A stretch of DNA of 64,000 nt, taken from assembly GCA_001447805.1 (NCBI GenBank), contig CP013099.1:2365181-2429180 (forward strand). Direction: 5' to 3'. The DNA comes from Candidatus Tenderia electrophaga. Its GTDB lineage: Bacteria > Pseudomonadota > Gammaproteobacteria > Tenderiales > Tenderiaceae. The translations under genes were made by a program, and so were the position numbers. Numbering within the stretch: the stretch's first letter is position 1; every line of letters starts with the position of its first letter. Below are positions 1,841 through 14,962 of the stretch, piece by piece. Below the pieces are notes generated by a model, which saw only the letters and a list, made by a program, of their open reading frames with translations, was not told where the DNA came from and searched no databases.

Positions 1841-2054
1841 CCTGAAGTGGCTGAGAAAAACCCCCGATAGAGTCGATATACTCTCCTACCCCATAGCGCT
1901 ATATTTATCCCTATATTCTCGCGCCAACGAGGCTTAACTTAGCGCCATTCGCTCCAGACCCGATTGATTTCTATCTCCTGCTCCACGGTGATGACATGCT
2001 TCAAATTCTCGATCAGCCCATTGTATTCTAATACCCAATAAACCATGACAAGGC
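1841..2054. other. intergenic stretch before the accessory region, with a possible 35-codon gene remnant
   Basis: No convincing gene or terminator is visible. On the minus strand, 2046 to 1939 is an ATG-initiated frame of 35 codons (begins MVYWVLEYNGL, ends RVWSEWR) whose composition looks protein-like. It could be the tail of a gene cut by the insertion events to its right, but it has no recognised homologue and may be chance. Confidence 0.3.
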
Positions 2055-2072
2055 CTACCCCCCTCTATTGTA
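2055..2072. repeat. degenerate guaA-type attachment site
   Basis: CTACCCCCCTCTATTGTA resembles the 8877-8895 sequence CTACTCCCACTCGATTGTA with one gap and a few substitutions. It stands at the same place relative to the 82-bp left-end repeat, which is the main reason for reading it as a decayed att site. Confidence 0.5.
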
Positions 2073-2154
2073 AACGAGCCATTATTATCTTTTATATTCA
2101 ATGGCTTATTCTCCTGCTAAATCGTAATACCATGAAAAATACCATGCTCAGAAA
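2073..2154. repeat. left-end repeat, copy 1 (pairs with 8896-8977)
   Basis: An 82-bp AT-rich sequence aligns without gaps to 8896-8977 with about 13 mismatches. Both copies contain ATCTTTTATA and two ATACCATG octamers spaced 12 bp apart (2127-2134 and 2139-2146 here). Neither copy is coding. The position directly inside an att-like site suggests a recombinase- or excisionase-binding end. Confidence 0.7.
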
Positions 2155-2205: not shown

Positions 2206-3762
2206 TCAGGTGTAATAAATCTCGGGCCGGCAGCCGATGCCGTTGCGACGCAGGACGCGCGCGAATGCATCGGCATATGTCTTGGCGGTTTCGGCGGACT
2301 GGCCGATGCGTTCAGCAGAAATCGCGTAGCCGGATTTGTAGTGACGGTGGCCCCGCCCGTTCTTGCGCAACCAACGCGCAAGCGATGTGCGCCCGTCTTC
2401 GATAACGACGATAGCACCTCCGCGATCGCCCTCCATATAGACCTGGTTTTCGACCACGAGTGGCTTGGGCACAAAGGCGCTCATGGCCTCCAGACCCGCC
2501 GCATGTGCGAGGTCGTATAGCGCCTGCCAGCGCTCGTCACCTTTCAGGCTGTCAGAGACGAGAGGCGGCGGTCTGGCCTGCTCTTCAAGCGCAGCATCCT
2601 TCTCGCCCGGATAGGCGGTAACAAATGAGGCGCGCTCGCCAGGTCGCACAATCCAGCCGGTCTCGATTGTCGCGGTCTCCCCGTTCTTCCCGGTGACAGG
2701 CAGATTGGCAGTGAAGCGGACGCCATAGTCATCAATGCGCACATTTTCATAGGTAACATGACCAAGGGCATCTACAAGCTGTCCGTGAAGATAGGTCGAG
2801 TCTGATTTTGTAATACCAAGATGCTCCGCAAAGAATTTTGCCTTACCATTGTTGTCCTTGTGGTCAGGGTTGAGCAAATAGTCTGTGATTTTGGTAGCCT
2901 GTACATTGACCTCATCCGGCGCATCCGGAAGCTGGGCAAGATCCCACTCAAAGTCACGCTCCAGATTGCTTAGTGACGGGCTGTAACTCAAATCACGCAT
3001 GACCTGCTGATGAACATCGAGCGCCATACGCCGCTCCATGCGCATTTCGCTGACGAGGCCACGGGCACTAAGCGTCGTGGGGAGAACTAGCGGCGGAGCG
3101 ACAGCATCAAACTGATCGTAGGGTACGACCCCTAGTCCGCCAGAAGAAAACGTATCGGCCCCGATGAAAGAAAGATTGCCCGTCCCTGGTATACCGCCGC
3201 GAATATACACACGGCCTCCACGCAGGAATGCGTCCTTGAACATCACCTCAATAAACAGGTAGCGGTGAAGCGGATTGCCCAGATCGGGCGAAACGGCTCC
3301 TATATAAAGCGGATGGGAACGCAACTCCTTGTCCATCCGCTCTGCAATATCCGGCGCGACCGCCGGCACGAATGTGGCATCGAGTGAGTGGTGGCCGACA
3401 TTTTCCCAAAAGGTCTCTCGATCTACCGTATGCCATCTTTCAAGGCATGACTCCACGAAGTCTCTGACGAGAGTGGCATAGAGACCCCGATCAGAACGCT
3501 CAGTATGACTCGTCTTCGAAGTCACTGGACCGTCAGGTTTGCGGCGCCTTGCCGGTTCGCCTTTGACTACTGCCGTCTTATAGGAAAGCCGCGCAAGCAG
3601 GACACCACCGCGATAAACGCGCGTCTCCACCGTGCCGTCTGGATCAGCAACTTTCAGTGCGCGCAAGAAAGCTTCGTCCAACCACTCGCCTTTCTTCACA
3701 GGCTCATGCGGTACAACGAACAAAAAAGCAACAGGCAAGGTTTCCGGCGAATCTACAGCCAT
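2206..3762 (-). CDS. Gabija-like operon third gene with DUF6883-like region, function unknown
   Basis: A 518-residue protein with no signal peptide or membrane segment. Residues about 277-386 (LNPDHKDNNGKAKFF ... YGVRF ... TGWIVRPGE ... VTAYPGE) resemble DUF6883, a small domain common at the C-terminus of polymorphic toxins. I recognise it by pattern, not by search. The N-terminal 270 residues and the C-terminal 120 residues, rich in basic and aromatic positions, are unassigned. The start ATG at 3762 overlaps the end of the UvrD-like helicase gene by 10 bases. It is therefore the last gene of a coupled three-gene operon with the helicase and OLD nuclease. Canonical Gabija has only the nuclease and helicase, so this could be an effector, an inhibitor or an accessory nuclease. 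Confidence 0.7.
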   Translation of the reverse strand: MAVDSPETLPVAFLFVVPHEPVKKGEWLDEAFLRALKVADPDGTVETRVYRGGVLLARLSYKTAVVKGEPARRRKPDGPVTSKTSHTERSDRGLYATLVRDFVESCLERWHTVDRETFWENVGHHSLDATFVPAVAPDIAERMDKELRSHPLYIGAVSPDLGNPLHRYLFIEVMFKDAFLRGGRVYIRGGIPGTGNLSFIGADTFSSGGLGVVPYDQFDAVAPPLVLPTTLSARGLVSEMRMERRMALDVHQQVMRDLSYSPSLSNLERDFEWDLAQLPDAPDEVNVQATKITDYLLNPDHKDNNGKAKFFAEHLGITKSDSTYLHGQLVDALGHVTYENVRIDDYGVRFTANLPVTGKNGETATIETGWIVRPGERASFVTAYPGEKDAALEEQARPPPLVSDSLKGDERWQALYDLAHAAGLEAMSAFVPKPLVVENQVYMEGDRGGAIVVIEDGRTSLARWLRKNGRGHRHYKSGYAISAERIGQSAETAKTYADAFARVLRRNGIGCRPEIYYT

Positions 3763-5780
3763 GCGATACCACCATCCTGCTGTACACGCCCTACACGCCA
3801 GTTTCTACCCTTAAGAACCTCAATCTCTTGGGCGTCAAGATTGTCCCGCATTGCAATTGCCAGCAAGTGGGTTGGCCTCGTAAAAGCAACATAGTGCTGC
3901 TTGAGACGAGATTGCATGCGAGCACCTTCGGTGCCTTGGCCGGTCTTCTCGCCTAAAAGCCAGGGACGGAGCGCATTTAAATGGTGGTCGTAAAAGTAAG
4001 TATCGAGCACGAGCGTTGCCGTGTGAGTTTCGCCTTTAACCGAATGGATTGAGCCAACACGGACCTCAACGGTAGGGGCATCCGAAGGAAAGCGGTAAAC
4101 ATTGTCTTTGCGCCTCGCTTTTCGTACTACTTCCTCATCCGGTTCCTCATCAGGCCAGACCAGGAATTCATCCAGATGGACAGGGTTGATGTCGCCCCCT
4201 GTCAATAGCTCGGCAAGCTGAAGAATCACAGGCACCCAGGTCCCTTGCCACTCTTCTGGCCCAATGTCTGTTTCATCATCAATGATGCGCACAACGAGAG
4301 CCAGATAACGCTCTTTCAAGTCGGCCTGCCCTTCCAGCAATTCCAGGATCGAGCGATGCCGTCTCTTATGCTGCGTACGCTTCACAGCAGGATCAGCAAT
4401 CTGTACAGCGCGATAAATACCGTCAGCTATGCGATCGACGACGAAATGAATATCACCATCCGCACCAGCTGCATTCCAGCCAGCTGCAATATATTGATGA
4501 AACGTCTTGGGCCTGGGCTCGGCATAGCTCATCTCATGGTCATACTCAGGCCAATAATGCGCGACAAAACGTGGTGCGTTAGTATTTTCACCGGGACGGT
4601 GAACACCACCAACAGCCGTAAATGTACCCTCCGCCAGGTCTTCGTCGGAAAACAGCGCGCGCAGGTATCTCGCGTAACATTCGAGCACGCTGGTGATCGT
4701 GTCGTCTCGAAATAGAATGACGGCATGCCTGCCGTGCGTTTCGGCTTGCACCTTATGCACGGGCGGTCCCAGCCCAATCAGACCCTGTGGATTCAGACCA
4801 AGCGGATTGGCAAGATCAGCAATTTGCTGACCGAAGCGGTGGCTATTGGGAATATCGCGCCTGATGGCATCCACGGGAAACAGGTCACTCTGCGCGCCGG
4901 TCGCCCCGGTGTGCGCATAGATCGCTTGATTAGAGTCTCCATAGCGCTGTCGAATGACAGGATCATCGCCAGCGATAAAAATACGTTGAAGCAATCGTGA
5001 TTGTGACTCACTATTGTCCTGCACTTCATCAATGAAGAGCAGCGGAAATCTCTGCCGAATGATTGCGACAGCTTCCGGATGCTTGTTAAGCAAGTCTTCC
5101 GCCCACATAAACAGCTCTTCGTACCGATAGTACCCGTCTTCTGTACACTGACGAGCAAGCCGACAAAGTTGTTGTGCTGCTGGCTTATTTGGATCCACGA
5201 ATACCTGATTGCCGTTTTCCTTGAGAATCAGGAAATCAGGCGACGCAACATGCCAGCTACCGACAAAGTTTACGTTGGGATGCTTCTCCTTGTTAGCGAC
5301 AGTGGTTCTAAGCGCCGTGTATTGATTGAATGACAGTAGACGGCGCCGATGCTGTTCACAAAGAGCATCGTCTATAACTGCAATGGGATAACCCAGTGAA
5401 CGCAGCCACGGGATGGCGAGAAATTCGTTCACGAAACCGTGAATCGTCCCGACATAGTGGGGATAGGAAAGCAGCGTTGCTCCGGTGGCCGTACGACCGA
5501 GACTGCGCTCGATTTCACGGCGCGCCGCGTTTGTGTGCGATAACACGCAGATGCCTGAGCGCCTCGACTTCCACTTCCGCGCGAGAATCGCGAGTTTGGC
5601 GATAAGCAAGGTCGTTTTGCCGCTACCGGGACAGGCTTCGACATCAAGCGTTTCATCGCTGAGCAGCACGGCCGCGCGCGGATCATTGCCATCATCTCCG
5701 TGAAATGCCGTAGGCGGTAACCCAAGCACTTCACAGGCCCACCGGATATCACGATCATCGACAGGCGGCACTCTGAACAT
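3753..5780 (-). CDS. UvrD/Rep-like superfamily 1 helicase of an OLD-helicase defence operon (GajB-like)
   Basis: A 675-residue SF1A helicase. Walker A is at residues 49-57 (ACPGSGKTT), motif Ia follows (VLSHTNAA), Walker B is LLFIDEVQD at about 247-255, a motif V-like stretch is SIHSVKGETHTATL near 577-590, and motif VI is VAFTRPTHLLAIA near 631. All motor motifs look intact. Helicases of this kind sit next to class 2 OLD nucleases; in Gabija (GajA-GajB) the pair cuts or disables phage DNA. This one is longer than the approximately 490-residue Bacillus GajB, so it may be a sister system rather than Gabija proper. It starts 4 bases after the nuclease stop and overlaps the third gene by 10 bases. 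If the nuclease gene is really frameshifted, the helicase may be an orphan. Confidence 0.85.
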   Translation of the reverse strand: MFRVPPVDDRDIRWACEVLGLPPTAFHGDDGNDPRAAVLLSDETLDVEACPGSGKTTLLIAKLAILARKWKSRRSGICVLSHTNAARREIERSLGRTATGATLLSYPHYVGTIHGFVNEFLAIPWLRSLGYPIAVIDDALCEQHRRRLLSFNQYTALRTTVANKEKHPNVNFVGSWHVASPDFLILKENGNQVFVDPNKPAAQQLCRLARQCTEDGYYRYEELFMWAEDLLNKHPEAVAIIRQRFPLLFIDEVQDNSESQSRLLQRIFIAGDDPVIRQRYGDSNQAIYAHTGATGAQSDLFPVDAIRRDIPNSHRFGQQIADLANPLGLNPQGLIGLGPPVHKVQAETHGRHAVILFRDDTITSVLECYARYLRALFSDEDLAEGTFTAVGGVHRPGENTNAPRFVAHYWPEYDHEMSYAEPRPKTFHQYIAAGWNAAGADGDIHFVVDRIADGIYRAVQIADPAVKRTQHKRRHRSILELLEGQADLKERYLALVVRIIDDETDIGPEEWQGTWVPVILQLAELLTGGDINPVHLDEFLVWPDEEPDEEVVRKARRKDNVYRFPSDAPTVEVRVGSIHSVKGETHTATLVLDTYFYDHHLNALRPWLLGEKTGQGTEGARMQSRLKQHYVAFTRPTHLLAIAMRDNLDAQEIEVLKGRNWRVGRVQQDGGIAWL

Positions 5781-5784
5781 TGGC

Positions 5785-7804
5785 CTAATCCTGCATCTGA
5801 TCTTTTGCAGCGGGTTCGGCTTCTGGCGCTGGCGAGTCGGAGGTCACATGCTGGATAGCATCGACGATGTAATTCGGAAGAACAGCCTTCCATTCCGCCG
5901 GTATGCGCACGTGACTTTGACCAGTACGCGCGAGGATTCGTGCGAGATACTGGGCCGTGACAGACTTCGAGACTGTGCCCTTCGCGAGGGGCGCATAGAT
6001 CCGGGCCGCACGCTCGTCTTCTGACATGGCCTCCTCGGCGAATGTCTTCCAGTCCTTTAGTGCCTGCCGCGTAACACCAATGGCCTTTACCGTCTCCGAT
6101 GCGATGTCGTCGTCCTTCTTCGCCAAGGCAATGGCCAGAAACAGTTCGCGCCCCAGTCCGGCACGGGCAAGATCGTACTCAAGCGTCCAGTAGTCCGAAA
6201 CAAAGGTCTCAACGCTCTGGCCGCTTGCCCGCGCACGGATCGCCTGTTTGTGCTGGTCCAGCTCCCCTTCCCCGAAATCTAATTCGGCCTTCCAACGGCG
6301 ATTCTGGGGCTGGGGCCACGCCTCCCCGGCATTCACCTTACCGATGATCTTGGGAGCACAGTCGGGCATCACATCCGTATCGGCGATACACGCAACCGGA
6401 ATGCCGATCTCGCCGCCCTCCGCGGGATTCATTCTCTGGAAAATCCGTGCATATCGCCGGAACCCGGTACCCCCGACATTGACAATGGAAACCCCGCTCT
6501 CGGTCAGACCGTGGTCAATCAACCCAGCAATTGTAGGCACAAGAATATTTTCGGCATCGCCTTCAACAATGATGACACCGCGCGCGAAGAATAGATTGGC
6601 CTTCGTTACGTCGAGGAAACGCTGCAGGAACCGGTAGTCGGAAGGACTGAGGTTCGTCTCTCCTGACGCGAGGGAAAACGCTTTTCCTCCCTGAAGCAGG
6701 AGAAGATTGTCAAGGTCGATTGCGGATGCAAGATTGGGGCTGTGTGTTGTGACAAGTATCTGAATGTCGTGGCCGCCACCGACTGGCTGCGCTCTGTCTT
6801 GCAGAAAACGCATAAGTCGAAGCTGCCGCTGCGGATGAAGATGTGCTTCGGGTTCCTCAATCATCAGGAACGGGAAACCATCCTCTTCGGAACCGAGCAG
6901 AAGCAGTTCACAAGCCATGAACAGGATATTGTTCGAGCCGAGTCCTCTGTTGCGTGGCAAATGATCGGCTCCGGCCTCTTGAAGCTGAAGCTCAAGCTTT
7001 TCCAGGAGTTGCCGCAATCTCGCCGCTTCATCACCGGTCGCTACACCGATATCACCGCTAAGATCGGAGCCTGCAAAGGACAGATTCTTTAGATAGTCTT
7101 CGTTCAGTCGGTCGCGTGCACCCGTGAGGCCGACGTGACCTTTGAGGAGCGCGTTGGCGAAGTCCCCAATTCCAAGAATGCTGAGCGTTGCCGGGTCAGC
7201 CGGCGGACCAGCGGCATGGTCGTATGGCACACCGGCTGTAGCGATGTCGTCCGTGTACTGGAGAATATGCGAAAGACGTGATCCACGTCCAGCAGACAGC
7301 GCACGCTCTGCGTCTCGCAGGGGACGAAGATAGGTTGCGCAAAGCAGGTTTCGACTCTCCGGGTCGAAAACCGGGCCATCCGCGTCGACGCCGGAGCGGA
7401 CTTCAACTGACACATAACGGCGGTGTCTTGCGCGCCTTTCGGTGGCGAGCGCTTTCCAGTTCAGGTAGATGACAGGTACGCGACTGCCTTCGTGCTCTTC
7501 ATATGTCAGATATTCGGCAAATGCACCGGTGTCAGAACGTGTAAGCCCAGCGAAGCTGGCAGCGTATGCGAATCTCTTTACTCTGCGTGCCTTCAGCGGG
7601 GCAGTGAAAGTCATCATCATCGATGCGAAAATATTCCTGATCACGGGTACCGAGCGCAAGCCGCAGCGCGTCAACAATTACGGTCTTCCCGGAGTCGTTT
7701 TCGCCAACGATTGCGGTTAGTCCCGGCCGCAATCTGAGCAGGGCGGCATTCTCGCCCTCACCAAACAGGCGGAAGTTCTCGACTTTGAGCTCCGAAATAT
7801 ACAT
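5785..7804 (-). pseudogene. OLD-family ATP-dependent nuclease (GajA-like), interrupted by a +1 frameshift near 7555
   Basis: Two frames together encode one OLD-family nuclease. From the ATG at 7804, the first frame gives residues 1-83 with the N-terminal beta strand (MYISELKVENFRLFG) and Walker A (GENDSGKT, 34-41); it then runs into a stop at 7532. The second frame, entered by skipping one base at about 7555 (CAG, extra C, TTC), continues to 5785. It carries the signature-like GLGSNNILF, Walker B FLMIEEPEAHLHP, the His switch TTHSPN, and Toprim residues VEGDAEN and ADTDVMPD. The joined product would be 672 residues. It lies 63 bases after the antitoxin gene and 4 bases before the helicase. 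Either the strain's copy is broken or there is a one-base sequencing error; a programmed shift is possible but shows no obvious slippery site. Confidence 0.85.
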
Positions 7805-7867: not shown

Positions 7868-8149
7868 CTAAGCAGCAATTTCAATCTTGATATTCTTACC
7901 CAACGCTCTGGCTGCACGCTCCAGGGTCAGCAGCGTCACTGAAGGATTATCGGGATCAAGCAACCGTTCCAATGCGGAGCGGCTGGTTTTCATCCGCTTG
8001 GCCAGTTGGGTCTTGTTGAGTTTCTGCGCCTTCATCAATTCCTCGAGTTGAAAGGCAAGCACACGTTTAACTGCGATAGCTTCCGCTTCCGCAAGCACAC
8101 CTTCCTCTTCCAGAAAATCATCGAAGTTACTGCCAATGTGTTTGCTCAT
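7868..8149 (-). CDS. HigA-type XRE-family antitoxin
   Basis: A 93-residue protein with a helix-turn-helix of the Cro/XRE type in its C-terminal half (NKTQLAKRMKTSRSALERLL, then LTLERAARALG). This is the usual form of antitoxins that pair with Gp49/RelE-like toxins. It would neutralise the toxin and repress the operon. The ATG at 8149 was chosen because it lies one base after the toxin stop (8151-8153) and a purine-rich stretch precedes it; a longer frame to 8233 would bury the start inside the toxin gene. Toxin-first order is typical of higBA. Confidence 0.85.
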   Translation of the reverse strand: MSKHIGSNFDDFLEEEGVLAEAEAIAVKRVLAFQLEELMKAQKLNKTQLAKRMKTSRSALERLLDPDNPSVTLLTLERAARALGKNIKIEIAA

Positions 8150-8150
8150 G

Positions 8151-8495
8151 TTACTTCTCCAGGTTGGCTTTGCGATCTTTAGCCAATTGCAAATCAGCTT
8201 GAGGTGTCTTCTGGGATTTCTTGATGAAGCCATGCAGCAAAATCATCTTTTCACCCTTTACTGTAAACAGAATTCGAGCAATACGTTGATCAAGCCGACA
8301 CCTGACTTCCCATAGTCCGGGCTCCATTTTTCGAACCACTGGCATTCCGATAGGCCAGCCATATTGAACGGTCTTAATGTCGCCACCGATCGTCCTCTTG
8401 TCTTGTTTGCTCAGGCCCTGTAACCACACGCGAACCGGTTCATTTCCCGACTCCGTTCGGTAAAAAACCACTTCAAGAGGCATATCGGCATCCAT
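8151..8495 (-). CDS. HigB/Gp49-type RelE-superfamily toxin
   Basis: A 114-residue protein of the phage-derived Gp49-like (DUF891) toxin family: opening strand PLEVVFYRTESGNEPVRVWL, middle DKRTIGGDIKTVQYGWP, and the typical core GLWEVRCRLDQRIARILFTV followed by ILLHGFIKKSQKTP. Members are ribosome-dependent mRNA endonucleases. The catalytic-type basic and aromatic residues of the C-terminal half appear to be present. An alternative start lies four codons in (8483). A perfect inverted repeat 10 bases upstream of the ATG is the probable autoregulatory operator. The pair sits upstream of the OLD operon in the same orientation and may help maintain the element. Confidence 0.85.
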   Translation of the reverse strand: MDADMPLEVVFYRTESGNEPVRVWLQGLSKQDKRTIGGDIKTVQYGWPIGMPVVRKMEPGLWEVRCRLDQRIARILFTVKGEKMILLHGFIKKSQKTPQADLQLAKDRKANLEK

Positions 8496-8522: not shown

Positions 8523-8876
8523 ATTTACAAGCCTTTGATCATGAAAGCTAGAAATCTGAGAACAAACAACTTTGCCGCCCAGAGAGGGAGGGAAGTGATG
8601 TGAATGAGTTCATGGTCCTACAGGCGCCTGATCCAGTGTGACTCGTACTTGGTAACCAATACCATGACGGGCTCGACATGCATGGCATGGTATAGGTGCG
8701 TCACGCTGATTGTGAGTATGGCGATACCATGATCTATACCATTGGAAAACGGTACTAACTGCTTGCCGATGCCTGTCAGTGCCAGATGTTGCCAGACAAC
8801 AATGTGGGTAAGTCATTGGTTTTGCGGGCTGACTGCGTATTGATGCCTGTCAGTGCCAGCCAGTGCCAGATCTGGC
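8523..8876. other. non-coding right end of element 1, with repeated short motifs
   Basis: No convincing gene. The stretch holds several copies of an ATACCATG octamer in both orientations (8659-8666, 8686-8693 inverted, 8724-8731, and ATACCATT at 8736-8743) and two exact copies of an 18-mer (8768-8785 and 8842-8859). These look like protein-binding arrays at a recombination end. Confidence 0.55.
8768..8859. repeat. two copies of an 18-bp right-end repeat
   Basis: GATGCCTGTCAGTGCCAG occurs exactly at 8768-8785 and 8842-8859. A close form, AATGCCAGTCAGTGCCAG, sits at 13347-13364. The second and third copies end 17 and 20 bases before the att cores at 8877 and 13385. The shared placement suggests arm-type binding sites at the right end of each element. 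Confidence 0.7.
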
Positions 8877-8895
8877 CTACTCCCACTCGATTGTA
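8877..8895. repeat. internal guaA-type attachment site
   Basis: CTACTCCCACTCGAT at 8877-8891 is identical to the guaA 3' end at 13385-13399 (the complement of the codons for the last residues IEWE plus TAG). The following TTGTA recurs in the degraded site at 2055-2072. No guaA coding sequence is attached to it, so a repeated insertion target is the simplest explanation. Confidence 0.75.
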
Positions 8896-8977
8896 GATAA
8901 GCCATTTTTATCTTTTATACTCAATAGCTTTTTTTCATGCTAAACGGTGATACCATGAAAAATACCATGTTCAGAAA
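8896..8977. repeat. left-end repeat, copy 2 (pairs with 2073-2154)
   Basis: Ungapped partner of 2073-2154. It has the same two ATACCATG octamers 12 bp apart (8950-8957 and 8962-8969) and ATCTTTTATA. The rest of the gap up to 9229 holds no gene that I can support; a plus-strand frame at 8937-9197 is probably chance. Confidence 0.7.
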
Positions 8978-9229: not shown

Positions 9230-10111
9230 TTATGATAACTTCTCTTCAAGAAAGTTGACGAGTGCACGTACCTTGGGAGCGACGTGTTTGCGTGTCGGGT
9301 AGACGGCATAAATGCCCAACTCAATCGAACGGTATTCTGGAAGTATTTCAACGAGTCTGCCAGTCGCTAGATCGTCCCCGACGAGGAAAGTCGGCTGTAG
9401 AATGATACCCTGATGCGCAAGTGCAACGGCCCGGCATGTATCCCCGTTGTTTGTGGACATCCATGGGTGAATCTTCACGTTGATCGGACCCTCAGGACCA
9501 TCGAATTCCCAGGCATCCCCACCCATCCAGTAGCTATATCCGATGACTTTGTGCTCGGCCAGATCGGCTGGATTTGAGGGCTCACCATATTTATTCAGGT
9601 ACCCTGGTGAGGCACAAAGAACAATTCGAGTACTGGCAAGACGCTTGCTGATTAGTGATGAGCTGGACAAGGTGGCAATGCGGATCGCCAGATCATATCC
9701 CTCCTCAACCACATCCACGACACGATCAGAGAGTTCTATATCGAGCCGTACCTGAGGGTGCATTTCGTGGAATGCATCCCAGAGGGGTGCAAGAGTTTGA
9801 ACGCCAAAGGACACCGGTACATTCATTCGCAGGAGTCCGCGTGCCGCACCACTGCGCGAGCTAACCTCGGCTTCGGCCTCTTCAAGACCGGACAACAATT
9901 CACGGCAACGGGTATTGAACACGGCACCCTCTTCCGTGAGTGAAAGCCGCCGCGTGGTTCGATGCAGCAACCGCACGCCGAGTCGCGCCTCAAGGTCGGC
10001 CACATAGCGAGACACCGCCGGCTTTGACATGTGCAGCACCTCAGCGGCCTTGACAAAGCTACCCGCATCCACCACCGCGCAAAAAGTCTGCATTTCCTGA
10101 AATCGATCCAT
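9230..10111 (-). CDS. LysR-family transcriptional regulator
   Basis: A 293-residue LysR-type regulator. The N-terminal winged HTH covers residues 1-60 (FCAVVDAGSFVKAAEVLHMS, then KPAVSRYVADLEARLG, LLHRTTRRLSLTEEG), followed by a substrate-binding-like effector domain from about 90 to 293. It belongs by appearance to the large subgroup that regulates divergently transcribed redox or detoxification genes. It is transcribed away from the reductase gene at 10256, with 144 bases between them. The inducer is unknown; a quinone or other electrophile is suggested by the target genes (inference). Confidence 0.9.
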   Translation of the reverse strand: MDRFQEMQTFCAVVDAGSFVKAAEVLHMSKPAVSRYVADLEARLGVRLLHRTTRRLSLTEEGAVFNTRCRELLSGLEEAEAEVSSRSGAARGLLRMNVPVSFGVQTLAPLWDAFHEMHPQVRLDIELSDRVVDVVEEGYDLAIRIATLSSSSLISKRLASTRIVLCASPGYLNKYGEPSNPADLAEHKVIGYSYWMGGDAWEFDGPEGPINVKIHPWMSTNNGDTCRAVALAHQGIILQPTFLVGDDLATGRLVEILPEYRSIELGIYAVYPTRKHVAPKVRALVNFLEEKLS

Positions 10112-10255
10112 TGTTCCTAATATCGGTATAGTTCATTTCATATTTACGTGTTTATCTCAATTTACAGAACAAGTAAAGTTTTATTCGTACTCGGGATACA
10201 CCCGAATCCGCCGTGAGGCGGCTTTTAAAACACTGTTCAAACCAGGAGATAGACA
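10112..10255. promoter_or_regulatory. divergent control region with two short hairpins
   Basis: Between the LysR gene and the redox operon. It contains TCGGG-ATACA-CCCGA at 10192-10206 and, directly after, CCGCC-GTGA-GGCGG followed by CTTTT (10208-10226). The second resembles a small intrinsic terminator in the leader of the reductase gene. A LysR binding site is expected here but cannot be assigned with confidence. Confidence 0.45.
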
Positions 10256-10888
10256 ATGAATATTACTGTTATCGGAGCCGGCAACATGGGCTCGGCCTTC
10301 GTCAAGCAATTGGCCCATGCTGGACACCAGGTCACTGTCACCGCCCGCAATGTCGCCAAAGCCGACACTGTCGCGGCAGCCCATCCGGGGGCAAAAGCGG
10401 TCAGCCCGGAGCTGGCTGCTGACCAAGCTGAAGTCGTGATCATCGCTACGGCCTATGACGATGCGGTGAACGCGTTGCGTTCTGTGGGCGATCTTCAGGG
10501 CAAGGTCGTCATCGACATCACAAATCCTCTGACTCCCGACTATATGGGCCTGACCGTTGGCCATGAGACCTCTGCCGCCGAGGAGATAGCCAAGGCTGTA
10601 CCTGGCGTAGATGTCGTAAAAGCCTTCAATACCGTGTTTGCCCAGGTCCTGGCCGAAGGCGGAGATTTCGGCAACGGTCGCAAGGTGACCGTATTCATTG
10701 CCGGAGACAGCAAACAGGGCAAGGACAAGGCTCGTGCAGTCGCCGAAAGCATGGGGTTTGTAACGATCGACGCCGGTGGACTGAAGAATGCGCGTTACCT
10801 GGAACCGCTGGCTGGCCTGAATATCTATCTCGGATATGGCGCAGGCCTAGGCACACACATCGCGCCAACCTGGATGCAGGACGCCTAA
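10256..10888 (+). CDS. NADPH-dependent F420 reductase-like NAD(P)-binding oxidoreductase
   Basis: A 210-residue Rossmann protein of the F420:NADPH-oxidoreductase-like family. The dinucleotide motif is GAGNMGSA at residues 7-14 and the second strand ends in TARN, which suits NADPH. Further family patterns are VIDITNPLT (about 88-96), VKAFNTVFAQVL (about 122-133) and the C-terminal LEPLAGLNIYLGYG. Proteobacteria usually lack F420, so members here are thought to reduce other substrates; the true one is not visible. A good AGGAG site precedes the ATG. It is the first gene of the redox set, divergent from the LysR gene. Confidence 0.85.
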   Translation: MNITVIGAGNMGSAFVKQLAHAGHQVTVTARNVAKADTVAAAHPGAKAVSPELAADQAEVVIIATAYDDAVNALRSVGDLQGKVVIDITNPLTPDYMGLTVGHETSAAEEIAKAVPGVDVVKAFNTVFAQVLAEGGDFGNGRKVTVFIAGDSKQGKDKARAVAESMGFVTIDAGGLKNARYLEPLAGLNIYLGYGAGLGTHIAPTWMQDA

Positions 10889-10941
10889 TCAGATCGATAG
10901 GCATATCTATCAACCTATGTAAATTTACTGAGGAAAACATC

Positions 10942-11379
10942 ATGAAAACCTTAGTGAAAAAAGTTATGGCAACCGACACCAGTTTTGGCCAATTGGCCCT
11001 TCGCATCCCGATCGGCATCATCTTTGTCGCCCACGGCGCGCAAAAACTGTTCGGCTGGTTCGGTGGGTATGGCCTGGAAGGAACCGGTCAATGGATGGCC
11101 TCGATCGGCCTGAACCCCGGCTACCTGATGGCATTACTGGCCGGCAGTGCCGAATTTTTTGGTGGCCTTGCCCTGATCCTAGGCCTGCTGGTGCGGCCGG
11201 CAGCGGCGGTACTCGCCTTTACGATGATCACCGCAATTTTTGCTGTTCATATCGGTAACGGCCTGTTCATGAGCAATGACGGCTACGAATTTGGTCTGGC
11301 ATTACTGGCTGCATCGGTTGCCCTTGCCATCAGTGGTGCAGGCCGGGGTTCTCTCGATGCCTTGTTGTCCAGGAACTGA
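10942..11379 (+). CDS. DoxX-family membrane protein
   Basis: A 145-residue inner-membrane protein with four predicted membrane helices. It has the DoxX opening pattern (LALRIPIGIIFVAHGAQKLFGWFGG, residues about 15-39, shown in part) and SAEFFGGLALILGLLVRPAA near 70-90. DoxX proteins are linked to thiosulfate:quinone oxidation in archaea and, more widely in bacteria, to redox and thiol stress. The gene follows the reductase by 53 bases with a GAGGAAAA ribosome site. A strong hairpin follows at 11407-11429. Confidence 0.85.
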   Translation: MKTLVKKVMATDTSFGQLALRIPIGIIFVAHGAQKLFGWFGGYGLEGTGQWMASIGLNPGYLMALLAGSAEFFGGLALILGLLVRPAAAVLAFTMITAIFAVHIGNGLFMSNDGYEFGLALLAASVALAISGAGRGSLDALLSRN

Positions 11380-11406
11380 TCAAGGTCATGTGTACAGGCT
11401 CGACAT

Positions 11407-11429
11407 AGCCGGGACGAAGCGTCCCGGCT
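11407..11429. terminator. 10-bp perfect hairpin after the DoxX gene
   Basis: AGCCGGGACG, loop AAG, CGTCCCGGCT: a perfect GC-rich stem followed by TAAATT rather than a clean T run. It may end or attenuate transcription between the DoxX gene and the hydroquinone reductase gene. Confidence 0.6.
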
Positions 11430-11463
11430 TAAATTGAGCAGAAGCGTTTATAGGAGGTTTGAA

Positions 11464-12424
11464 ATGTTAATCAATGGGCAGTGGGCGAGAGATTTTCATC
11501 CCGTACAGGGTACCGACGACGAAGGCGGATTTGTTCGAGAGCAATCCCAATTTCGCAACTGGATCACAACTGATGGTAGCCCGGGACCAACCGGTGAAGG
11601 AGGTTTTGTCGCGGAACCTGACCGCTATCATCTGTATGTTGCACTGATTTGTCCCTGGGCCTCGCGCACATTGATGGCTCGTAAACTCAAGGGCCTGGAA
11701 GATGTCATTTCGGTTACCGTGCTCGATCCCCGCCTGACTGAAAAGGTCTGGCGTTTTGGTGACGACAAGAGGGCAATTCCAGGAACTCAATCTGACTCAC
11801 TGTACGGCGCTGAATACCTTTACCAGATCTACCTGCGTGCAAAGTCTGATTATACTGGTCAGGTCACTGTTCCCGTGCTTTGGGACAAGCATAAAGAGAC
11901 CATCATCAACAACGAATCTTCCGACATTATTCGCATGTTAAATGACGGGTTTGGCAACCTGGCCAGGGAATGCATCGATCTCTACCCAATTGATCTACGC
12001 ACTGAAATCGACGACGTCAACGATCGTCTCTACGACAATTTCAACAACGGCGTGTACCGCGCCGGTTTTGCGACAACCCAGATAGCCTATGAACGAGCTG
12101 TCCAGGACAGTATTTGATAGTCTGGACTGGATTGATCGGCGACTCGACAATCAAGACTATCTGGTTGGCGACCGTCTCACCGAGTCTGATGTGCGAGCAT
12201 TCGTCACCCTGATCCGCTTCGACCTCGCCTATCACGGGCTCTTCAAGACCAATCTCCGCCAGCTGCGCGACTATCGGAATATCACTGCCTATATGAAACG
12301 TATCTACGAGCTGCCGGGCATCGCAGAAACGGTATCGCCAGAGCATATTAAAATTGGATACTACTCCATCCGCGCCCTGAATCCTTCGGGTATCGTCCCG
12401 ATCGGCCCCACGGAATTATGCTAA
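11464..12424 (+). pseudogene. yqjG: glutathionyl-hydroquinone reductase (YqjG/Xi-class GST), +1 frameshift near 12105
   Basis: Two overlapping frames match one protein of the Xi-class glutathione transferases, which reduce glutathionyl-hydroquinones. The first frame starts at ATG 11464 behind an ideal AGGAGG and contains FRNWITTDGSPGPTGEGGF, the catalytic-Cys motif LICPWASRTL, and VPVLWDKHKETIINNESS. It continues to GFATTQIAYERAVQ and stops at 12117. Skipping one G in the pair at 12105-12106 joins it to TVFDSLDWIDRRL, which continues to PSGIVPIGPTELC at 12424. The join restores the family spacing exactly. The joined length is about 319 residues (E. coli YqjG is 328). As sequenced the protein would lose its alpha-helical C-terminal domain. 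Confidence 0.85.
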
Positions 12425-12488
12425 TACTGGCCGCCCTTGGGGGAAAAACATTCACATGAAGAACGGGCTAACCTGACAGGAACTAAAA

Positions 12489-13298
12489 ATGATCGAAGAA
12501 AAACGCGACCAATCCCATGACCGAATGCCGGTGGTTTTTGTTGGTCACGGCTCACCCATGAATTTAGCTCAAGTCAATCAGTGGAACCGTGGCTTTGCAC
12601 AGTTACGCCACCACGTACCAAAGCCAGCGGCCATTTTGGCAATCTCGGCACACTGGTATGAGAGCGGCAGCTATCTGACATCTAATCAGCAGCAACCAAC
12701 CATTCATGATTTTGGTGGTTTTCCAGATACGCTCTATAACATACAGTACCCTGCTCCTGGAGACCCGCTACTTGCTGAGCAAGTGCACGATCTCCTTGGG
12801 GAGTGGCAAGTGCAGCTTACCGAGGATTGGGGACTGGATCATGGAATCTGGTCAGTGCTGCACTGGATGTATCCAGAAGCAGATATCCCTGTCGTGCAGC
12901 TTAGTATAGATCGAATGCTTGATGTGCGGCAGCACTATGCGATTGGCAGATCACTTGCCGGATTGCGTGATCAAAACATTCTCATAATGGCCAGCGGGAA
13001 TATTGTGCACAATCTTCCCGATGCTTTCAAACATATGCGATTTGGTACAACTACCACTCCTGAATGGGCCAGTCGTTTTGACGAGGCCGTCAAGCAAGCA
13101 TTACTCGCACATGACACTGAAGCTCTTTTGTCGCTGTACCCAGATTCAGCCGATGGAAAACTTGCACATCCCACTCCGGATCACTGGTTACCGTTGATTT
13201 ATGCAGCAGGTGTGGTAAATGCAAATGATCGTGTAAGTTTTCCAACCGAGGGATTCGATTTAGGGTCTCTTTCAATGAGAAATATTATTTTCGGATAA
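12489..13298 (+). CDS. ygiD: DODA-type extradiol aromatic ring-opening dioxygenase (YgiD-like)
   Basis: A 269-residue member of the 4,5-DOPA-dioxygenase / LigB-like family, which opens catechol rings with a single metal ion. Candidate metal and active-site histidines are in VGHGSPMN (about 17-24), ISAHWYE (about 51-57), DWGLDHGIWSVLHWMYPEA (about 117-135) and NIVHNLPDAF (about 172-181). The length matches E. coli YgiD. It ends the redox gene set; together with the reductase, DoxX and hydroquinone reductase it suggests handling of quinones or catechols (inference). Confidence 0.85.
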   Translation: MIEEKRDQSHDRMPVVFVGHGSPMNLAQVNQWNRGFAQLRHHVPKPAAILAISAHWYESGSYLTSNQQQPTIHDFGGFPDTLYNIQYPAPGDPLLAEQVHDLLGEWQVQLTEDWGLDHGIWSVLHWMYPEADIPVVQLSIDRMLDVRQHYAIGRSLAGLRDQNILIMASGNIVHNLPDAFKHMRFGTTTTPEWASRFDEAVKQALLAHDTEALLSLYPDSADGKLAHPTPDHWLPLIYAAGVVNANDRVSFPTEGFDLGSLSMRNIIFG

Positions 13299-13346
13299 TA
13301 TCGACTGCGCTAGCATCTGGCTGCGAGAGCTTGAAGCCTCAGCCGA

Positions 13347-13384: not shown

Positions 13385-13399
13385 CTACTCCCACTCGAT
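13385..13399. repeat. guaA-borne attachment site (attB-like)
   Basis: The last codons and stop of guaA, read on the plus strand as CTACTCCCACTCGAT, are repeated at 8877-8891. The 3' end of guaA is a known integration site for genomic islands in bacteria; insertion there keeps guaA intact because the repeat supplies the end of the gene. Confidence 0.75.
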
Positions 13400-14962
13400 G
13401 GTCCCCGGCGGTTTGCCGGTGATGTCATAGACCACGCGCGAGATGCCCTTCACCTCGTTGACGATACGGCGCGAGACGTGGTCGAGGAATTCATAGGGCA
13501 GATGGGCCCAGCGCGCGGTCATGAAGTCGATGGTCTCCACTGCGCGCAGGGCTACCACCCATTCGTAACGACGCCCGTCGCCGGTGACGCCGACGGATTT
13601 GACCGGCAGGAAGACGGCGAAGGCCTGCGAGGTCTTGTCATAGAGATCGTGCTTGCGCAGTTCTTCGATGAAGATATGATCGGCCAAACGCAGCACGTCG
13701 GCGTATTCCTTTTTCACCTCACCCAAAATACGCACACCCAGACCGGGGCCGGGAAAGGGGTGGCGATAGACCATGTCATAGGGCAGGCCCAGTTCCAGGC
13801 CGAGCTTGCGCACCTCGTCCTTGAACAGCTCGCGCAGCGGCTCTAATAATTTCAGTTTCATGGTCTCCGGCAGGCCGCCGACGTTGTGGTGCGATTTGAT
13901 GACATGGGCCTTGCCGGTCTTGGAGCCGGCCGATTCGATGACATCGGGATAGATGGTGCCCTGGGCCAGCCACGTGGCCGCGGTCAGCTTACCGGCCTCT
14001 TCGTCGAAGATATCGATGAACATGTTGCCGATGATTTTGCGCTTCTTCTCCGGATCGCTTTCACCCTTCAGGGCATCGAGAAAACGCTGTTCGGCGTCGA
14101 TGCGGATCACCTTCACGCCCATGTGTTCGGCGAAGGTGGCCATGACCTGGTCGCCCTCCTTGTGGCGCAACAGACCATTATCGACAAACACACAGATGAG
14201 CTGATCACCGATGGCCTTGTGCAACAGGGCGGCGACCACCGACGAATCGACGCCGCCGGACAGACCCAGCACCACCTCGTCGTCGCCCACCATCTCACGC
14301 ACCTGAGCGATGGCCTCCTCGACGATATTGCCCGGCGTCCAGGCGGCGGCGCAGTCGCAGATCTCGTGCACGAAGCGTTCGATGATGCGCTGGCCCTGGT
14401 TGGTATGGGTCACCTCGGGGTGGAACTGCAGGCCGTAGAAATGCTTCTCTTCATTGGCGATACCGGCGACGGGGGCCGAGCCGGTAGAGGCCATGAGCTT
14501 GAAGCCCGGCGGCAGGTCGATCACCCGGTCGCCGTGGCTCATCCACACGTCGAGGATGCCGTAGCCTTCCTCGGTGGTGTGGTCTTCAATATCTTTAAGC
14601 AATTGGGTGTGGCCGCGGGCGCGCACCTGGGCATAGCCGTATTCGTGATGATCGGCGTTTTCCACCTTGCCGCCCAATTGCTGGGTCATGGTCTGCATGC
14701 CGTAACAGATGCCCAGCACCGGCACGTCCAGTTCGAACACGACTTGCGGCGCCAGCGGCGCATTGGCCGCCACGGTGCTCTCCGGCCCGCCCGAGAGGAT
14801 AATGCCCTTGGGCGCGAATTCGCGAATGGCGGTTTCATCCATGTCCCAGGCATGCAGCTCGGAATAGACGCCGGCCTCGCGCACGCGACGGGCGATCAGC
14901 TGGGTGTACTGGGAACCGAAATCGAGAATAAGGATACGGTCGTGATGGATGTCTTTGCTCAT
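13385..14962 (-). CDS. guaA: GMP synthase (glutamine-hydrolysing)
   Basis: A 525-residue enzyme that converts XMP to GMP with glutamine and ATP in the cytoplasm. The class I glutamine amidotransferase domain is N-terminal ([17 protein letters not shown], nucleophile in [20 protein letters not shown] with the catalytic His). The ATP-pyrophosphatase domain starts near 208, with the PP-loop [10 protein letters not shown]. The dimerisation domain ends in KPPGTIEWE. Length is the family norm. It follows guaB by 61 bases in the same direction, and the pair is normally one operon. Its 3' end serves as the boundary of the accessory region. Confidence 0.98.

What the first reader, a model, noticed from the sequence alone, without database searches (positions are those of the whole stretch)
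2206..7804. Three-gene OLD nuclease / UvrD helicase operon with an added DUF6883-like protein
Canonical Gabija is a two-gene system. Here a third gene overlaps the helicase gene by 10 bases and carries a region resembling DUF6883, otherwise known from polymorphic toxins. Nuclease and helicase are both longer than the founding Gabija proteins. This may be an undescribed Gabija relative with a toxin-like effector.
Basis: partly seen in the sequence, partly recalled or inferred. Interest (0 to 1): 0.8.

Follow-up and report, generated by a model that had tools for sequence, protein, structure and literature searches.

The report
Portable tRNase-like third gene on Gabija
Behind an ordinary two-gene Gabija anti-phage system sits a third gene with a domain folded like tRNA-cutting toxins; relatives of that gene sit in the same last position behind two other, unrelated two-gene systems, so it looks like a rare add-on effector that different bacterial immune systems have picked up, although no activity has been shown.

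Summary
In detail: GajA, GajB and a third gene (P3, 518 aa) lie in that order, and P3 overlaps gajB by 10 bases. Pfam DUF6883 in P3 is real (E 6e-20). In this genome gajA is frameshifted; a close relative has it intact. GajA and GajB are recognised Gabija proteins of a long subfamily already in PADLOC.

The reading "undescribed Gabija relative" is only partly right. Full-length P3 homologues are rare and not tied to Gabija. They follow GajAB (two related cassettes), SIR2-HerA (Thiohalobacter), or an uncharacterised PIN + ~800-aa pair (Variovorax, Ramlibacter). Three more distant ones have no such pair next to them. GajAB normally lacks P3 (none of 36 plasmid GajB records).

The DUF6883 part of the AlphaFold model matches the CdiA tRNase toxin 6CP9 (Z 11.3, 2.1 Å, 101 residues) and keeps its Lys-Tyr-Thr triad. 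Short DUF6883 proteins and toxin C-termini are followed by a DUF4926 gene in 33 of 39 loci; long P3 never is (0 of 7).

Best explanation: P3 is a portable, probable tRNase effector with no dedicated immunity gene, controlled by its own flanking domains or by the host system. RNase activity and anti-phage function are inferred, not shown.

The parts
2206..3762 (-). P3, third gene, 518 aa: N-domain + DUF6883 (BECR tRNase-like) + C-domain
   Evidence: ORF; DUF6883 E 6.2e-20; AF2 model pLDDT 77.7; purifying selection
2968..3762 (-). P3 N-domain (residues 1-265), ferredoxin-like core, YIGAxSPDLGNPLH motif largely conserved; no clear structural relative found
   Evidence: alignment; model and fold search, best Z 4.6
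2605..2931 (-). DUF6883 domain (residues 278-386), BECR/CdiA-CT-like; K291, Y295, H301 and T382 in the putative active site
2209..2589 (-). P3 C-domain (residues 392-518), conserved only in the long P3 family
   Evidence: alignment; no Pfam match
3753..5780 (-). GajB, UvrD-like helicase, 675 aa
   Evidence: PADLOC GajB E 1.8e-176; Pfam UvrD-helicase
5785..7677 (-). GajA, C-terminal part (ATPase C part + OLD-like TOPRIM), out of frame with the start
   Evidence: PADLOC GajA E 4.7e-171; PF20469 TOPRIM; frame break
7532..7804 (-). GajA N-terminal piece with Walker A motif; reading frame lost at about 7550-7610
7868..8233 (-). HTH antitoxin-like gene upstream of gajA; 95% identical in L011
   Evidence: Pfam HTH_37
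8151..8495 (-). Gp49/RelE-like toxin gene; 93% identical in L011
   Evidence: Pfam Gp49 E 3e-22
2052..2154 (+). Downstream copy of the direct repeat bounding the cassette
8874..8977 (+). Upstream copy of the direct repeat (85% over 104 bp); its edge carries a copy of the guaA 3' end; only two copies in the genome

Best explanation
P3 is a portable accessory effector that has been added as the last gene of different two-gene bacterial immune systems, one of them this Gabija. Its middle domain (DUF6883) is a BECR-fold ribonuclease of the CdiA-CT/colicin D kind and most likely cuts tRNA. The N- and C-domains, found only in this long family, stand in place of the export module and the DUF4926 immunity gene that accompany DUF6883 in polymorphic toxins. 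The likely order of events: the partner complex (GajAB, SIR2-HerA or PIN + ~800 aa) senses infection; P3, kept quiet by its own flanking domains and/or by the partner, is switched on; tRNA cleavage stops translation and adds a growth-arrest arm to a system that otherwise attacks DNA or NAD+. Shown by computation: domain, fold, triad conservation, operon position, recurrence behind three systems, absence of DUF4926, purifying selection. Inferred: RNase activity, tRNA as substrate, control by the partner, anti-phage role.
For: DUF6883 E 6.2e-20. Model residues 285-386 match 6CP9 at Z 11.3, rmsd 2.1 A, 101 residues; the related 6CP8/6VEK at Z about 8; RelE-like toxins at Z 6-7; everything else at or below 4.3 (Foldseek E 8e-4, prob 1.00). 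6CP9 is a tRNase with residues K157, Y160, H170, R252, T255 (PMC9086364; PMC6851490). The ends of the structural alignment put K291 on K157 and T382 on T255. K291 and Y295 are invariant in all sequences compared; T382 is kept in 6 of 7 long proteins (Ser in the other). Position: overlaps gajB by 10 bp in the window and in L011; starts 0 bp after herA in L010; 75 bp after the ~800-aa gene in L013, and after the same gene's end in L012. The partner pairs exist elsewhere without P3. DUF4926 follows 33 of 39 non-P3 DUF6883 loci and 0 of 7 long P3 (hypergeometric p about 3e-5, my arithmetic). Purifying selection. P3 lies inside the repeat-bounded cassette with gajAB.
Against: Few examples: two Gabija loci (one cassette lineage), one SIR2-HerA locus, two PIN-pair loci. 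Three distant homologues (L007, L008, L015) have no recognised pair beside them. The arginine that is conserved in DUF6883 toxins (R379 column) is lost in every long P3, and H301 is Gly in L012/L013, so activity could be reduced or changed. No contact between P3 and a partner could be modelled. In the window gajA is broken while P3 is intact, which argues against GajA alone restraining a constitutively active toxin. The PIN + ~800-aa pair is not a proven defence system.
Confidence: 0.5

Rival explanations
1. Guard/back-up model: P3 is a latent toxin held inactive by an intact partner complex and freed when a phage inhibits or destroys that complex, so it punishes anti-Gabija or anti-SIR2 proteins.
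For: P3 is the last gene directly behind the partner's ATPase/helicase gene in different systems and lacks its usual DUF4926 immunity gene. P3 is truncated inside the nuclease domain in L011 and in L014.
Against: In the window gajA is frameshifted yet P3 and gajB are intact. Orphan P3 genes exist without any partner. In L011 the truncated P3 sits with an intact GajAB.
Confidence: 0.2
2. P3 is a catalytically weak or dead BECR protein that works as an RNA-binding regulator or scaffold of the defence complex.
For: The toxin-type arginine (R379 column) is lost in all long P3 and the histidine is lost in two. Long, conserved flanking domains without known catalytic relatives.
Against: The Lys-Tyr-Thr triad is kept almost everywhere; K291 and Y295 are invariant. 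The DUF6883 domain is under strong purifying selection.
Confidence: 0.15
3. P3 is an independent defence or competition gene that merely travels in the same islands and is not functionally coupled to its neighbours.
For: Distant homologues L007, L008 and L015 have no recognised partner pair and lie near IS elements or integrases. DUF6883 generally belongs to toxins.
Against: All five closer homologues with upstream DNA sit within 0-75 bp behind, or overlap, the last gene of a two-gene system on the same strand, and the window copy lies within one repeat-bounded cassette with gajAB.
Confidence: 0.15

Closest known systems
Gabija (GajA-GajB, class 2 OLD + UvrD-like helicase)
   Same: GajA and GajB homologues in the right order and spacing, PADLOC E-values below 1e-170.
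   Different: Third gene P3 overlapping gajB; gajA broken here; Gabija is described as two components in a 4:4 complex (PMC10568477), and its PA14 version is reported non-abortive (PMC12407980).
BECR tRNase toxins CdiA-CT Kp342 (6CP9) and EC3006 (6CP8)
   Same: Fold over about 100 residues (Z 11.3 and 8.0) and Lys-Tyr-Thr triad.
   Different: Inside a defence operon, no CdiA export part, no CdiI/DUF4926 immunity gene, conserved arginine lost.
DUF6883-DUF4926 toxin-immunity-like pairs and DUF6883 tips of MuF, FHA-type and other polymorphic toxins
   Same: The same Pfam domain.
   Different: Those are about 110-aa proteins or toxin C-termini followed by DUF4926; long P3 has extra N- and C-domains and no DUF4926.
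PARIS and similar ATPase + tRNase immune systems
   Same: General idea of an OLD/ABC-type sensor with a separate nuclease effector (from general knowledge; PARIS is discussed with OLD proteins in PMC10568477).
   Different: The PARIS effector is a TOPRIM nuclease, and P3 has an unrelated BECR fold; in Gabija the TOPRIM stays within GajA.
SIR2-HerA
   Same: P3 homologue (53% identity) starts directly after herA in Thiohalobacter.
   Different: Other SIR2-HerA loci on plasmids have no P3.

Membership tests
Gabija | GajA: OLD ATPase with TOPRIM domain | tested here: met
   Both pieces match GajA models; TOPRIM PF20469 E 2.7e-17; intact copy in L011
Gabija | GajB: UvrD-like helicase directly downstream | tested here: met
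   GajB E 1.8e-176; starts 4 bp after gajA
Gabija | Intact gajA in this genome | tested here: not met
   Frame break at about 7550-7610; sequencing error not excluded
Gabija | Anti-phage activity | not testable with these tools
   Needs phage challenge
BECR (colicin D/CdiA-CT-type) RNase | BECR fold | tested here: met
   6CP9 Z 11.3, 2.1 A, 101 residues, well above unrelated rows; on a predicted model
BECR (colicin D/CdiA-CT-type) RNase | Lys-Tyr-Thr triad | tested here: met
   K291 and Y295 invariant, T382 in 6 of 7 long proteins; placement on the 6CP9 residues inferred from the alignment ends, not from residue-level output
BECR (colicin D/CdiA-CT-type) RNase | Auxiliary Arg and His | tested here: inconclusive
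   H301 present in 5 of 7; toxin-type R379 absent in all long P3
BECR (colicin D/CdiA-CT-type) RNase | RNase/tRNase activity | not testable with these tools
   Biochemistry needed
Polymorphic toxin with DUF6883 | Adjacent DUF4926 immunity gene | tested here: not met
   0 of 7 long P3 against 33 of 39 other DUF6883 loci
Polymorphic toxin with DUF6883 | Toxin domain at the C-terminus behind an export or trafficking module | tested here: not met
   DUF6883 is central, followed by a conserved domain of about 125 residues; no other Pfam match

The most novel reading that the evidence does not exclude
Long DUF6883 proteins are a plug-in effector class: one tRNase module with adaptor domains that can be coupled to mechanistically unrelated sensors (OLD-helicase, SIR2-HerA, PIN pair) and gives each a translation-arrest arm, possibly as a guard against anti-defence proteins.
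Probability: 0.35. Interest if true: 0.8.

Novelty: new variant of a known kind. Interest (0 to 1): 0.6.

Why it matters
If P3 is a real effector, one gene has been recruited by at least three systems with different chemistry. That would make 'interchangeable effector' directly testable: move P3 between GajAB and SIR2-HerA in a laboratory strain. It would also give a function to DUF6883 and DUF4926, for which the open-access library held no DUF6883 paper and one paper mentioning DUF4926, and suggests that some Gabija loci may be abortive while two-gene Gabija of PA14 is reported not to be.

Tried and rejected
(1) P3 as a Gabija-specific subunit: rejected by the neighbourhood survey. (2) P3 in viruses: two scans of viral contigs and a phage-record search found no relative of long P3. 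(3) Sequence-profile matches to solved structures: none for P3 or for the ~800-aa partner. (4) N-domain fold: ferredoxin-like arrangement only, best Z 4.6 to ribosomal protein S6; no relative claimed. The C-domain was barely tested by the fold search. (5) Weak RnfG matches of the P3 C-domain in three genomes: chance. (6) Truncation of P3 in L011 by an insertion sequence: first idea, dropped, since the downstream repeat follows directly, which means a deletion. (7) IetAS next to P3 in Ramlibacter L012: dropped as partner, because it lies 1.2 kb downstream while the upstream edge of the contig holds the end of the PIN-pair's second gene. (8) Broader genome searches (class, family, phylum and order draws, about 1,680 genomes counted) added no further full-length P3 beyond those listed.

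Full report
What is there. On the minus strand, a Gp49/RelE-like toxin gene (8151-8495), an HTH gene (7868-8233), gajA, gajB (3753-5780) and P3 (2206-3762) follow one another closely; P3 overlaps gajB by 10 bases and gajB starts 4 bases after gajA. GajA and GajB are unambiguous by PADLOC. GajA is in two frames, and the intact 672-aa GajA of a gammaproteobacterial MAG (L011) aligns across both, so the reading frame is lost at about 7550-7610. Whether this is a mutation or a sequencing error cannot be told here.

P3. Pfam sees one domain, DUF6883, at residues 278-386 (E 6.2e-20). Full-length homologues exist in Thiohalobacter (L010, 53% identity), Ramlibacter (L012, 45%), Variovorax (L013, 45%), a Methylobacterium plasmid (L007, 31%), an Oscillospiraceae MAG (L015, 30%) and a Streptomyces plasmid (L008, 26%), and share the N-domain, DUF6883 and the C-domain. 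L011 and a Sulfuritalea MAG (L014) carry copies truncated inside DUF6883. The coding sequence is under purifying selection.

Fold and active site. An AlphaFold2 model built with 28 sequences has mean pLDDT 77.7. Its DUF6883 part matches the tRNase toxin CdiA-CT of Klebsiella pneumoniae 342 (6CP9) at Z 11.3, rmsd 2.1 Å over 101 residues, then the related E. coli 3006 toxin at Z about 8 and RelE-like toxins at Z 6-7; unrelated chains are at or below 4.3. The reviewed active site of 6CP9 is K157, Y160, H170, R252, T255, with a Lys-Tyr-Thr triad recognised by comparison with colicin D (PMC9086364, PMC6851490). The ends of the structural alignment place P3 K291 on K157 and T382 on T255. K291 and Y295 are invariant; T382 is kept in all but one long protein, where it is Ser. 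The arginine common in the toxins is absent in all long P3, and the histidine is replaced in two. I read this as a probably competent but altered RNase.

DUF6883 elsewhere. Outside the long family the domain is about 110 aa on its own, or the C-terminal tip of MuF-type phage proteins, of very large filamentous or polymorphic toxins and of others. A small profile of DUF4926 finds that gene next to 33 of 39 of these loci, and beside none of seven long P3 genes (three of the 33 supplied the seeds). This fits DUF6883 as toxin and DUF4926 as its immunity, and sets long P3 apart as a toxin domain without that immunity. The toxin/immunity assignment is inferred from architecture.

Neighbours of long P3. 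Behind GajAB in the window and L011; immediately after SIR2-HerA in L010 (PADLOC E 7e-112 and 1e-208); 75 bp after a PIN-domain + ~800-aa pair in L013, and after the end of the same ~800-aa gene in L012 (60% over the last 25 residues, E 7e-6). L007, L008 and L015 show no such pair, though L008 lies near defence-type genes. Conversely, the pairs usually lack P3: 36 plasmid records with GajB and 117 with HerA were found, only 4 plasmids carry DUF6883 matches, and none of those is among the organisms and records listed for GajB or HerA (not every record of the two long lists was printed); inspected examples have no P3, and PIN + ~800-aa occurs without it. P3 is thus an optional last gene shared by different systems. 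The sample is small: three partner types, five loci, with the two Gabija loci being one cassette.

The cassette. The five genes are bounded by a direct repeat (2052-2154 and 8874-8977, 85% over 104 bp), present only twice in this genome, whose edge repeats the guaA 3' end; guaA itself is at 13385-14962. L011 has the same block right behind guaA with similar repeats further on. This looks like a guaA-site integrative cassette, with P3 travelling inside it. In L011 the end of P3 is deleted up to the repeat.

Mechanism. Most likely P3 is a tRNase-like effector wired to a partner sensor. A guard role and a non-catalytic role are the main rivals. The intact P3 beside a broken gajA speaks against GajA alone restraining an always-active toxin. 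None of the functional steps has been tested.

Literature. No paper in the open-access library mentions DUF6883 and one mentions DUF4926; Gabija is described there as a two-component 4:4 complex (PMC10568477). Subscription papers and most preprints were not covered, so novelty is stated with that limit.

Noticed in passing
window 2052-2154 and 8874-8977; guaA 13385-14962; L011 4871-5268, 11029-11163, 14912-15012: Direct repeats that carry copies of the guaA 3' end bound the Gabija cassette, and a second block (about 9230-13300) lies between it and guaA, which suggests tandem guaA-site integration.
   Followed up: partly
window 7532-7804 / 5785-7677: gajA is frameshifted in this genome while gajB and P3 are intact.
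   Followed up: partly
L011 10001-11044, L014 2-547: Two P3 relatives are truncated inside the nuclease domain, one by a deletion.
   Followed up: partly
L013 2181-5536, L079 3952-7373, L080 3940-7391: A conserved two-gene pair, PIN-domain protein + ~800-aa protein (weak HEAT-repeat signal), found on plasmids or near integrases; no PADLOC match, possibly an undescribed defence system.
   Followed up: partly
L009, L016-L042, L051-L057: DUF6883-DUF4926 is a widespread toxin-immunity-like pair, also at the tips of MuF phage-head proteins, with no described function found.
   Followed up: partly
window 7868-8495; L011 5155-5893: A RelE-like/HTH toxin-antitoxin-like pair sits directly upstream of gajA in both cassettes and may regulate the operon.
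   Followed up: no
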